64,000 nucleotides of DNA. Origin: Candidatus Bathyarchaeia archaeon. Its GTDB lineage: Archaea; Thermoproteota; Bathyarchaeia; Bathyarchaeales; Bathyarchaeaceae. Below the pieces are notes generated by a model. The model made no database searches and was not told the DNA's origin. It saw only the letters and a list, made by a program, of their open reading frames with translations. Positions 20,105 to 38,266 of this stretch are shown here, piece after piece; position 1 is the stretch's first letter, and every line of letters begins with the position of its first letter. The translations under genes and the position numbers were made by a program. Where the stretch lies: contig DATETJ010000011.1 in NCBI GenBank assembly GCA_035283685.1, positions 157,994 through 221,993 of the forward strand, in the 5' to 3' direction.

Positions 20105-20818
20105 TTATGGCGATTTTCGGGGTTTCTGACGTCTTTGTCTTAGTTTTTCTAGAGTTTTGGGCACGGCTTCCCACCCTTTTTGCGTTTTGGCGTTGATGAT
20201 TTGAAAGGCTTCTTTGGCGGTGATGCGATTTAGTTCCGAGCCTGTCGCCTGTCTGAGCAAGTATTGCGCTGCGTTTAAGACTTCGCCGTTTAGCCTTGAA
20301 TCAGCCATGTCTGCCAAGTGTACGATTAGTGCTTCGGCTGTTCTAGGTCCCATCGGTCCGTGTTGCCAGCCCATGTGAGCAACGATTATGTGAACTAGGT
20401 TGAGAGGAAAGCCTCTTTGAATGAGTTCAGCTACTCCCAATGTGAGGTGGTCGAGACGTTCAGCGAGCGGTGCCGTGACGTAGGTACCGTTCTCCCGTTC
20501 AACGTACGTTAACGCTTTGAAGATATCATGGAGTAGTGCGCCGGCTACAACTAGGTCTCGGTCAACCGTCTCATTGTACACATTCTCTACGGTGTCACAT
20601 AAGGCCAAAGCGATGTTCGTTGTCGAGATCATGTGCTCGACTAGACCGCCAGGATAACTGTGATGATGCGATAAGCCCGCAGGCGATTTTTCAAGGGGCA
20701 TTCCTGCGTACACTTTGCCTTCTATCTTGATTGTGGGGTCTTCTATTAAGGCAGCGACTTTTTGCCGCAGTGTCTTGCCTGCAATTTTGTTGATTGCTCT
20801 TTTCAGTTTTGGGTCCAC
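20105..20818 (-). CDS. HD-domain phosphohydrolase, YhaM/Cbf1-like
   Basis: A 237-residue protein with GTG start at 20818. Metal-binding residues are visible: HHHSYPGGLVEH (His51-53 and His62), LLHDIFKA (His97-Asp98) and VHLADMADS (Asp near 179). The spacing of the HH-(S/A)Y-GGL-EH block matches the HD domain of bacterial YhaM/Cbf1 3'-5' exoribonucleases, but the N-terminal OB domain is absent. It is the last gene of an operon with taw1, translin and endonuclease V, which favours a nucleic-acid or nucleotide substrate. Exact substrate is inferred only. Confidence 0.82.
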   Translation of the reverse strand: MDPKLKRAINKIAGKTLRQKVAALIEDPTIKIEGKVYAGMPLEKSPAGLSHHHSYPGGLVEHMISTTNIALALCDTVENVYNETVDRDLVVAGALLHDIFKALTYVERENGTYVTAPLAERLDHLTLGVAELIQRGFPLNLVHIIVAHMGWQHGPMGPRTAEALIVHLADMADSRLNGEVLNAAQYLLRQATGSELNRITAKEAFQIINAKTQKGWEAVPKTLEKLRQRRQKPRKSP

Positions 20819-20846
20819 GTTCTGGTTTTTCTCCTCTTGTTGATAG

Positions 20847-21518
20847 TTATGGGTGGGTTATTTTTCGTTTGCGTAAATCTCTTTCTTTCGTTGCCAAGGT
20901 GTGGGCTGTGTAGATGGGTTCAGGCACTCTTGCCGATTTGGTGCAATGTTTGACGATTTCGATGGCTCTGTTCAATGAAATCTTGTGGCCGACGCTGACG
21001 TAGACTGGCTGCTCGTTTTCCTTTCTGCTCAGCGCCGCGCCTAAGACCTCGCCTTTATCGGTTATTGGGGACCAACCTTCTGGGCTCGCTGAATCGACGC
21101 TCCCATAGAGGAGGCTCTTTGCCACGCCGACAGTTGGCTTGTCTGTAAGTAGTCCCAAATGGCTGGCGAACCCAAGTCGACGGGGATGTGCTATTCCTTG
21201 AGCGTCGACCAGAAAGACATCTGGCTGTATCTTAAGCTTCTTGATGGCTGCTCGTGCTGGTTTGATTTCTCTGAAAGACAAAAGAGTGGGAATGTAGGGA
21301 AAGCTTGTCTTCACTGTTGCTATCTGGGCTTCAACAAGCGACAATGTTGCGTACCTGAGTACGGCAACTGCACCAATGGCAAAGTCTTCGACATAGGCTA
21401 CGTCGACTCCTGCAACATAATTGAGCCTCTCAGGAAGCGTGTCTTCCCTTATGACTTGTTTCGACAATCGTAGCTGAAGCTGCCGAGCCTTTTCAACCGA
21501 GAACTTGCCGCGTAGCAT
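20847..21518 (-). CDS. nfi: endonuclease V
   Basis: A 223-residue protein of normal family length. The catalytic acidic residues are recognisable: Asp39 in VAGVDVAYVED, Glu84 in LSFREIKPA, and Asp105 with His111 in FLVDAQGIAHPRRLG. TDKPTVGVAKSLLYG follows. Endonuclease V cuts the second phosphodiester bond 3' of deoxyinosine in DNA, and in many organisms of inosine in RNA. It is 28 bases from the HD gene and 12 bases from the translin gene, all in one direction. The linkage to tRNA and RNA genes raises an RNA role. Confidence 0.94.
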   Translation of the reverse strand: MLRGKFSVEKARQLQLRLSKQVIREDTLPERLNYVAGVDVAYVEDFAIGAVAVLRYATLSLVEAQIATVKTSFPYIPTLLSFREIKPARAAIKKLKIQPDVFLVDAQGIAHPRRLGFASHLGLLTDKPTVGVAKSLLYGSVDSASPEGWSPITDKGEVLGAALSRKENEQPVYVSVGHKISLNRAIEIVKHCTKSARVPEPIYTAHTLATKERDLRKRKITHP

Positions 21519-21530
21519 GCTCTTTTAGCT

Positions 21531-22178
21531 CTACTTTTGGCGCTTGGTTCTTTGCTTGACTAGTTTTTCAAGGTTTTTCATGCATTTTTCAAGTGAGCTG
21601 CGTCGAGCTTCGATTGTTATGTCGCCTCGTGTGGTTTCGATCAAGTGTCGTGCCACATCGCTTTTTCGGCGGAGTCCGGGCACAAGCATGTACGCTTCGT
21701 CCATGGCCATGAGTTCAACATAGATTTCCTCCATTAGCTGTAGGCTTTGTTCAGCTGTTTTCACGTCTTCTCTGCGAAGTGAGTCCAGGGCTCGTCTTCT
21801 TAATTCGCCGATTACGTCTGCTAGTCCAAGGACGTAGTCGATTGACGGCGCGTCGATTTCCTCGGGTCTGATGAAACGATTCTCCTCAACAAGAGTCAGT
21901 AGTGTCTGCGCTTCTGCGTACTCTTGATGAGCTGCGTTTACTAAGCCTGAGTAAGACATGTCTGGATAAGTTTCGGCAATAGAATGCAGTTTGATGAAGA
22001 GTTCAGTGGTTTCTTTCAACAGTTTCTTGGCCTCTTTGAACCTTTGCTGATGTGTAAATAAAATGGCTTGTTTGGAGAGCCGTGTGGCTCGGCGCATGTC
22101 GCGCTGAACTTCTTCGTGTATTTTCTCACGCTTTTGTAGTTCATTCTGAATCTTACTTAGCAGGGTCTTCAACGACAA
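21531..22178 (-). CDS. translin family protein
   Basis: An almost wholly helical 215-residue protein: REKIHEEVQRDMRRATRLSKQAILFTHQ near the N-terminus, the family's YAEAQTLLTLVEENRF, DYVLGLADVIGELRRRALDSLRREDVKTAEQ, and a basic C-terminus. These match the archaeal homologues of eukaryotic translin/TRAX, octameric single-stranded nucleic-acid binders. The TRAX-type catalytic acidic residues cannot be assigned with confidence by eye. The start is a TTG at 22178. It lies between taw1 and endonuclease V in a tight operon. Confidence 0.88.
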   Translation of the reverse strand: MSLKTLLSKIQNELQKREKIHEEVQRDMRRATRLSKQAILFTHQQRFKEAKKLLKETTELFIKLHSIAETYPDMSYSGLVNAAHQEYAEAQTLLTLVEENRFIRPEEIDAPSIDYVLGLADVIGELRRRALDSLRREDVKTAEQSLQLMEEIYVELMAMDEAYMLVPGLRRKSDVARHLIETTRGDITIEARRSSLEKCMKNLEKLVKQRTKRQK

Positions 22179-22212
22179 GGTGGGTAACCGTCCAGTTAGG
22201 TTATTGAGAGCT

Positions 22213-23172
22213 TCATGTTAGCCTAATAGGCTTTTGCAGCCTGCTCAAGAGGACAACTCGGCTTTCAGATGCTTCATCAAGCACGTGGTATCCTGTTCCT
22301 TCCGCTAATTCTTTCGCGAACGTGTTGATCTCCATGTGGCTTGGCGTGTTCTCGTATTCGAGGCGGAGTTGAGAGAAGCCAACGTGCATGTAGCTTTCTG
22401 GTTCAACGTAAGTGGGATTGGCTTTCTTGATCAGCTTTGCGTAGAGTTCGGGGTGCGCCAGATTGTGATGCTTAACAAGAGTAAGTCTGAGCACGGTGGG
22501 ACAACTGAAGCTGGGAAGATGGCTTAGAGTTTCATTTAGCCTAGTCCAAGCGTTTGGGAACTGCGGGCGACATGTTTCGAGAAAAGTTTTCTCATCGTAG
22601 GCACAGAGCGAAACATACAGCTGGGTTGGTTCTTCGCTGAGTCTGCTCAGCGCTTCGGGTATGGTTCCATTTGAAACCAAGAACGTCGTGAATCCCCGCT
22701 TGTTGAACAGGCGAAGCAATGCGCTCAAGTGTGGGTAGAGGGTGGGTTCGCCTGTAAGGCTTATTGCCACGTGTCCTGGTTTCAGGGCTTCTCTGAGTTT
22801 CCATTCGTCGGTTTTTGGGTTGCCCTTGTAGCCTGTTAGTATCTTTCTTTGCGCTTCGAGGCACCCTTCAACAATCCGTTCAGGGTCATCCCAGCGTGCA
22901 TCTGGCGTCTCTCTCCATCTGAGGTCGGGCTTGTCGCCACTGTGTGCTCGCCAGCAGAAACTGCAATGCATATTGCAGTAGTGGACAGCCGGCGTCATCT
23001 GAACGCATTTGTGCGTTTTGATACCGTAGAACTTCTGTTTGTAGCATGGGCGCTGATTGACGAGGGCTTCATGGAACCATCGGCAGCGTTTGACTGCTGA
23101 GTGTGAGCCTATTAAGTGGTATTTCTGTGTCTTCAGTAGCTGGGTGAGTTTGTCTGGAATTTCATTGTGCAA
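22213..23172 (-). CDS. taw1: 4-demethylwyosine synthase Taw1/TYW1
   Basis: A 319-residue radical SAM enzyme. Two iron-sulfur clusters are indicated: Cys66-x3-Cys70-x2-Cys73 (YCNMHCSFC) and Cys30, Cys43, Cys56, at the same spacing as in archaeal TYW1. It forms the tricyclic base 4-demethylwyosine from m1G37 of tRNA-Phe with pyruvate, following Trm5, whose gene is at 34281-35390. The TTG start at 23172 has GAGGGG about 10 bases upstream. It is the first gene of the operon with translin, endonuclease V and an HD protein. Confidence 0.95.
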   Translation of the reverse strand: MHNEIPDKLTQLLKTQKYHLIGSHSAVKRCRWFHEALVNQRPCYKQKFYGIKTHKCVQMTPAVHYCNMHCSFCWRAHSGDKPDLRWRETPDARWDDPERIVEGCLEAQRKILTGYKGNPKTDEWKLREALKPGHVAISLTGEPTLYPHLSALLRLFNKRGFTTFLVSNGTIPEALSRLSEEPTQLYVSLCAYDEKTFLETCRPQFPNAWTRLNETLSHLPSFSCPTVLRLTLVKHHNLAHPELYAKLIKKANPTYVEPESYMHVGFSQLRLEYENTPSHMEINTFAKELAEGTGYHVLDEASESRVVLLSRLQKPIRLT

Positions 23173-38170: not shown

Positions 38171-38266
38171 TGGCGGGCCCGAGGGGAATTGAACCCCTGA
38201 CCTACGGATATCTCTATTACGGACATTTAAGAGTCCGCCGCTCTAACCTTGCTGAGCTACGGGCCC
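38171..38266 (-). tRNA. tRNA-Lys(CTT) with 18-base intron, CCA encoded
   Basis: The minus strand has acceptor GGGCCCG/CGGGCCC, D arm GCTC-GAGC, and T arm GGGGT/ACCCC-like with TTCAATT. Anticodon stem GCGGA pairs with TCCGT after removal of an 18-base intron inserted between positions 37 and 38 of loop CTCTTAA (anticodon CTT). CTCT and AGAG at the exon-intron borders can form the central helix of a bulge-helix-bulge splice site. The 3' end encodes G73 and CCA. TTAATAAAC about 45 bases upstream is a TATA candidate. Confidence 0.88.

What the first reader, a model, noticed from the sequence alone, without database searches (positions are those of the whole stretch)
20105..23172. Operon of taw1, translin, endonuclease V and an HD phosphohydrolase
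Four minus-strand genes with gaps of 34, 12 and 28 bases join a tRNA-modification enzyme, a translin homologue, an inosine-specific endonuclease and an HD domain like that of YhaM exoribonucleases without its OB domain. tRNA-Arg follows on the same strand. Translin/TRAX acts in RNA-fragment and tRNA-processing turnover in eukaryotes, and EndoV can cut inosine in RNA. The set could be an archaeal RNA surveillance or repair module: recognise (translin), nick (EndoV), trim (HD).
Basis: partly seen in the sequence, partly recalled or inferred. Interest (0 to 1): 0.6.

Follow-up and report, generated by a model that had tools for sequence, protein, structure and literature searches.

The report
Archaeal operon: TRAX, EndoV, HD nuclease
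A four-gene operon that is kept in the same order across many archaea of one order joins a tRNA-modifying enzyme to three predicted nucleic-acid-cutting enzymes; it is a version of an already described tRNA-linked gene cluster that has lost one gene and gained a new exonuclease-like one, and it points to what may act after endonuclease V in archaea.

Summary
In detail: TYW1/Taw1, a TRAX-type translin protein, endonuclease V and an HD protein lie in line with gaps of 34, 12 and 28 bases. It is not unique to this genome. TRAX and EndoV are in order on one strand in 114 of 121 genomes of the order that have both, EndoV-HD in 74 of 78, and all four in 50 genomes of 31 genera. No other window gene within 8 kb recurs, and the tRNA-Arg is incidental. 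In relatives the O-phosphoseryl-tRNA synthetase gene sits between TRAX and EndoV. That TRAX-SepRS-EndoV cluster, sometimes with TYW1 and riboflavin kinase, is published (PMC5424206, PMC8762117); the HD gene is not in the text of the latter. So this is a SepRS-less variant with an HD gene added. The HD protein is closest to the YhaM exoribonuclease by sequence and predicted fold and occurs almost only with EndoV. Best reading: an RNA-maintenance operon in which EndoV nicks 3' of inosine, the HD protein trims the end, and TRAX is itself an RNase. The biochemistry is inferred; DNA repair and plain co-transcription remain possible.

The parts
22213..23172 (-). TYW1/Taw1, 4-demethylwyosine synthase (radical SAM tRNA G37 modification), TTG start, first gene
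   Evidence: TIGR03972 1.5e-120, 401.8 bits, over cut-off; Wyosine_form and Radical_SAM Pfam domains; CX3CX2C motif in YCNMHCSFC
21531..22178 (-). TRAX-type translin-family protein, TTG start, predicted RNase
   Evidence: PF01997 1.2e-10; closest to AfTrax 3zc1/3zc0 2.5e-20 and NEQ131; E86, E89, D121, E125 invariant in 20 sequences
21519..21530 (-). 12-base TRAX-EndoV junction; in relatives with the fuller cluster the 1.6-kb SepRS gene lies exactly here
   Evidence: 13 genomes of the order with a SepRS gene in this slot; window genome has no SepRS but has CysRS
20847..21518 (-). Endonuclease V, ATG start
   Evidence: PF04493 5.1e-68, NF008629 deoxyribonuclease V over cut-off, PDB 4xpu 8e-44; D39, Y75, E84, K134, H206 invariant, D105 nearly so, in 19 sequences
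20105..20818 (-). HD-domain protein, YhaM-like without OB domain, GTG start, last gene; predicted 3'-5' exonuclease or phosphohydrolase
   Evidence: PF01966 3.5e-13; YhaM 9h3f 1.9e-13 by profile; predicted fold pLDDT 90.4, only significant PDB match YhaM 1.4e-6; H62, H97, D98, H124, H143, D170 invariant in 35 sequences

Best explanation
This is the SepRS-less descendant of the published TRAX-SepRS-EndoV(-TYW1) cluster, to which a YhaM-like HD gene was joined after EndoV, probably near the base of this archaeal order (gene order and absence of SepRS: shown here; repeated loss: inferred). Most likely mechanism (inferred): the operon makes a small RNA-maintenance set. EndoV cuts the second phosphodiester bond 3' of an inosine, leaving the lesion next to a 3' end. 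The HD protein, like the weakly processive YhaM, trims that end by a few nucleotides and removes the lesion. TRAX, a self-assembling C3PO-type RNase, clears the RNA fragments. TYW1 is a co-transcribed tRNA-modification gene and need not act in the same step.
For: Order conserved: TRAX-EndoV 114/121, EndoV-HD 74/78, four genes in 50 genomes of 31 genera and 5 families; short or overlapping junctions, median 7.5 and 28 bases; no other neighbour conserved. SepRS lies between TRAX and EndoV in relatives, including close ones; parsimony needs 4 changes for SepRS and 3 for HD. HD is tied to EndoV and not to TRAX: 47 of 48 HD-bearing genomes at least 90% complete have EndoV, against 21 of 45 without HD, p=7e-9 (30/30 against 7/11 genera, p=3e-3). 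HD nearest YhaM by sequence and predicted fold; YhaM trims 1-3 nt at 3' ends, including ends left by endoRNases, and also takes ssDNA (PMC11347170). Active-site residues conserved in all three nucleases. Nearly always one translin-family gene per genome, hence presumably a TRAX homo-oligomer. PfuEndoV cuts inosine in RNA (PMC4693234; PMC4357722). An EndoQ-like gene lies elsewhere in the genome, so the operon's partners are RNA genes rather than this DNA-repair gene.
Against: Other members vary (proteasome subunit, riboflavin kinase, SepRS, a 67-aa protein, PhzF), which suits a housekeeping operon as well as a pathway. TRAX is kept where EndoV is absent and is statistically independent of it. 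HD is sometimes found away from EndoV. Archaeal EndoV also cuts DNA. No activity, complex or transcript has been measured.
Confidence: 0.42

Rival explanations
1. Housekeeping operon without a shared pathway: the genes are co-transcribed because an ancestral translation-related cluster (psmB-TYW1-TRAX-SepRS-EndoV-riboflavin kinase) was inherited and eroded. Order persists by operon inertia; HD merely took over the last slot.
For: In other classes of the phylum the same core is flanked by proteasome subunit and CTP-dependent riboflavin kinase genes, with no functional link between these; gradual loss is the published view (PMC8762117); TRAX and EndoV presence are independent.
Against: EndoV-HD stay together and co-occur beyond what the operon alone demands; the TRAX-EndoV pair outlives loss of its neighbours in several families.
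Confidence: 0.33
2. DNA repair pair: EndoV nicks DNA 3' of hypoxanthine and the HD protein acts as the 3'-5' exonuclease that removes it (alternative excision repair); TRAX and TYW1 are only neighbours.
For: The EndoV scores over the cut-off of the deoxyribonuclease V model; YhaM also degrades ssDNA (PMC11347170); the step after EndoV in archaeal repair is described as having remained unclear (PMC4357722); HD co-occurs with EndoV and not with TRAX.
Against: Neighbours are RNA/tRNA genes; an EndoQ-like protein, proposed DNA-side partner of EndoV, is present in nearly all these genomes at other loci.
Confidence: 0.18
3. One reading: translin recognises damaged tRNA, EndoV nicks it at inosine, HD trims it.
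For: Conserved order and YhaM-like HD protein.
Against: The translin-family protein is of the catalytic TRAX type; tRNA-Arg linkage is incidental; no evidence that tRNA is the substrate. From general knowledge, archaeal tRNAs carry 1-methylinosine at position 57 and lack I34, so a tRNA inosine target is doubtful.
Confidence: 0.05

Closest known systems
TRAX-SepRS-EndoV gene cluster of archaea (Mukai et al. 2017, PMC5424206; 2022 update PMC8762117)
   Same: Same TRAX and EndoV genes, same order and strand; TYW1/Taw1 reported as an occasional member; Bathyarchaeota among the carriers
   Different: SepRS is missing in the window and in most of its order; the HD gene, absent from the text of the 2022 paper (0 occurrences of 'HD domain'), follows EndoV where riboflavin kinase sits elsewhere
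Archaeoglobus fulgidus TRAX / archaeal C3PO (PDB 3zc0, 3zc1) and Nanoarchaeum NEQ131 (5jr9)
   Same: Full-length homology, single-copy family member, conserved acidic residues including the Asp replaced by Ala in 3zc0
   Different: Sits in an operon with EndoV and HD; activity untested
YhaM / Cbf1 3'-5' exoribonuclease (PDB 9h3f, 9o7t)
   Same: HD domain homology over residues 44-177, same order of His/Asp residues, closest fold in the PDB
   Different: No N-terminal OB domain; own N- and C-terminal helices; archaeal clade linked to EndoV
Endonuclease V with EndoQ in Thermococcales (PMC4357722)
   Same: Archaeal EndoV whose downstream pathway is described as unclear
   Different: Here the linked candidate partner is an HD protein; EndoQ-like genes lie elsewhere

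Membership tests
TRAX (catalytic branch of translin family) | Homology to archaeal TRAX over the whole length | tested here: met
   AfTrax 2.5e-20 over residues 8-191
TRAX (catalytic branch of translin family) | Catalytic Glu/Glu/Asp/Glu set | tested here: met
   E86, E89, D121, E125 invariant in 20 sequences; D121 aligns with the Asp that is Ala in 3zc0; spacing fits human D193/E197 (E197 from PMC9246224; the other numbers from general knowledge)
TRAX (catalytic branch of translin family) | RNase activity, octamer | not testable with these tools
   -
Endonuclease V | Family model and active-site residues (Asp, Glu, Asp, Lys, His, wedge Tyr) | tested here: met
   PF04493 5e-68, NF008629 over cut-off; D39, Y75, E84, D105, K134, H206
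Endonuclease V | Cuts RNA rather than, or as well as, DNA | not testable with these tools
   Among archaeal enzymes, reported in the papers read for P. furiosus EndoV
YhaM exoribonuclease | HD catalytic domain of the YhaM type | tested here: met
   Profile 1.9e-13; Foldseek 1.4e-6, next-best match 4e-3
YhaM exoribonuclease | N-terminal OB fold, about 325 aa | tested here: not met
   237 aa, no OB region; score 39 against cut-off 460 for NF010007. Therefore YhaM-like, not filed as YhaM
TYW1/Taw1 | TIGR03972 equivalog over cut-off, CX3CX2C | tested here: met
   401.8 bits against 317.95; motif
TRAX-SepRS-EndoV cluster | TRAX and EndoV in order on one strand | tested here: met
TRAX-SepRS-EndoV cluster | SepRS present | tested here: not met
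   No SepRS in the window genome (the only hit is below cut-off and covers only profile positions 180-340, the part shared with PheRS); present in the same slot in relatives

The most novel reading that the evidence does not exclude
The EndoV-HD pair is a dedicated inosine-RNA repair or decay unit in archaea: EndoV nicks, a new OB-less YhaM-type exonuclease removes the lesion at the new 3' end, and TRAX degrades the fragments, supplying the missing ribonuclease that acts after EndoV.
Probability: 0.2. Interest if true: 0.75.

Novelty: new variant of a known kind. Interest (0 to 1): 0.5.

Why it matters
Whether archaeal EndoV serves DNA, RNA or both is stated as unknown (PMC4357722), and the ribonuclease that acts after human EndoV was stated as not identified (PMC4693234). 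A conserved operon that puts EndoV between a TRAX RNase and a YhaM-like HD protein, with HD found almost only where EndoV is, names two concrete partner candidates and makes both questions testable with recombinant proteins. It also shows that the published TRAX-SepRS-EndoV linkage survives loss of SepRS.

Tried and rejected
Translin as passive RNA binder: rejected from the alignment with AfTrax and the conserved acidic residues. tRNA-Arg as part of the unit: rejected. HD as a replacement for EndoQ: rejected, an EndoQ-like gene is present in 85 of 88 good genomes, including the window's, though below the family cut-off. Hidden SepRS or a remnant in the window: none, the junction is 12 bases and the own-genome hit fits PheRS. 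Defence system: only a weak Cas3-type HD score and viperin-type radical SAM scores, far weaker than the specific models. Gene fusions among cluster members: long open frames at G129 and G354 turned out to be separate genes. First HD alignment failed through a strand mistake and was redone. One promoter-pattern search was at chance level.

Full report
What is there. Pfam and NCBIfam identify them clearly. tRNA-Arg(TCG) lies 40 bases further on, but has its own TATA-like element about 33 bases upstream (read) and no tRNA gene was found in 25 related loci, so it is not part of the unit.

Is the order real? I searched the 163 held genomes of the window's order (69 genera, 9 families) for each gene and tabulated positions. 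TRAX and EndoV follow each other on one strand in 114 of the 121 genomes that have both; six of the rest are split over contigs. EndoV and HD follow each other in 74 of 78. All four are in order in 50 genomes of 31 genera and 5 families. In 66 contigs fetched through HD (nearly all titled Bathyarchaeota), EndoV is near in 58, TRAX in 54, TYW1 in 39, whereas every other window ORF within about 8 kb has a homologue near HD in 0 or 1. Junctions are short or overlapping (medians 7.5 and 28 bases). The HD family scan, which relies on sequence patterns, found it in this archaeal group only.

Where it comes from. In 13 genomes of the order a 1.6-kb gene lies between TRAX and EndoV. It is SepRS, O-phosphoseryl-tRNA synthetase (TIGR00470, over 620 bits in the two tested). 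The window genome has no SepRS but has a CysRS over its cut-off. Literature: Mukai et al. 2017 proposed an ancestral operon of SepRS and TRAX (PMC5424206), and the 2022 update reports that SepRS is most commonly accompanied by TRAX and endonuclease V, occasionally by TYW1/Taw1, riboflavin kinase or DUF169, with gradual loss (PMC8762117). 'HD domain' does not occur in that text. Across the phylum sample outside the order, of 83 genomes with both TRAX and EndoV located, 16 have SepRS between them, 11 have them adjacent without SepRS, and 5 have them close on opposite strands (the match lists are truncated, so these are lower bounds). There the flanks are often a proteasome subunit before TYW1 and a CTP-dependent riboflavin kinase after EndoV. 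In the window's order HD takes the riboflavin kinase slot. On a tree of joined TRAX and EndoV, SepRS needs four changes and HD three, and SepRS carriers lie inside the window's own near clade. Since SepRS is always in the same slot, repeated loss is the simplest reading; the root is not inferred, so gain and loss are not formally separated.

What the proteins are. The translin-family protein is closest to AfTrax (2.5e-20) and NEQ131. Its D121 aligns with the residue that differs (Asp against Ala) between 3zc1 and 3zc0; E86, E89, D121 and E125 are invariant in 20 sequences; nearly all genomes have a single member. It is therefore a TRAX-type RNase candidate and not a passive recogniser. EndoV keeps its active-site residues. 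The HD protein keeps H62, H97, D98, H124, H143 and D170. Its predicted fold (mean pLDDT 90.4) has one significant PDB match, YhaM (1.4e-6, rmsd 2.7 over 196 columns), and profile search of the PDB sequences gives only YhaM (1.9e-13). It lacks the OB domain that YhaM proteins all have (PMC11347170), so it is YhaM-like and not filed as YhaM.

What they may do. HD is tied to EndoV and not to TRAX: among 93 genomes at least 90% complete, 47 of 48 with HD have EndoV against 21 of 45 without HD (p=7e-9; genus level p=3e-3; genomes are related, so the first p is too small). EndoV cuts the second phosphodiester bond 3' of the lesion (PMC4357722), which leaves the lesion beside a new 3' end; a 3'-5' exonuclease of low processivity is what the next step needs. 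YhaM removes 1-3 nucleotides, also after endoRNase cuts, and degrades ssRNA, ssDNA and nanoRNA. This fits RNA as well as DNA. For RNA speak the neighbours (TYW1, TRAX, SepRS) and that PfuEndoV cuts inosine-RNA; EndoQ-like genes, the proposed DNA-side partner, lie elsewhere. For DNA speak the model that the EndoV scores under and YhaM's ssDNA activity. Shown: anatomy, conservation, relation to the SepRS cluster, conserved active sites, HD-EndoV co-occurrence. Inferred: every activity, the order of steps, and that RNA is the main substrate.

Verdict.

Noticed in passing
L076:4206-4409 +, L077:5392-5595 -, and 49 other loci: A 61-70 aa protein, very highly conserved (GRGRLFRRKDGKYLIYLPKDLAEDSMFPFK...), lies between TYW1 and TRAX in many relatives (51 loci of the set, some duplicated between collections). 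It has no Pfam match even at E=1 and is absent from the window.
   Followed up: partly
L154, L155, L164, L152, L171: In other classes of the phylum the cluster is often flanked by a proteasome subunit gene before TYW1 and a CTP-dependent riboflavin kinase after EndoV; the proteasome link is not in the passages of the SepRS papers that I read.
   Followed up: partly
genomes G010-G014, G038, G046: Longer proteins (258-330 aa) with 30-36% identity to the HD protein sit elsewhere in genomes that lack the cluster HD; they may be complete YhaM homologues.
   Followed up: no
G000:C2:11282-12544 (own genome, outside the window): A second CysRS-like stretch (294 bits) with two in-frame stops, beside an intact CysRS at C9:121116-122522; possible pseudogene.
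   Followed up: no
window 38171-38266 -: ARAGORN reports a tRNA with a four-base anticodon (ttaa), 96 bases long; probably a false positive.
   Followed up: no
L079:5065-5952 +: A PhzF-family gene is inserted between EndoV and HD in one relative.
   Followed up: no
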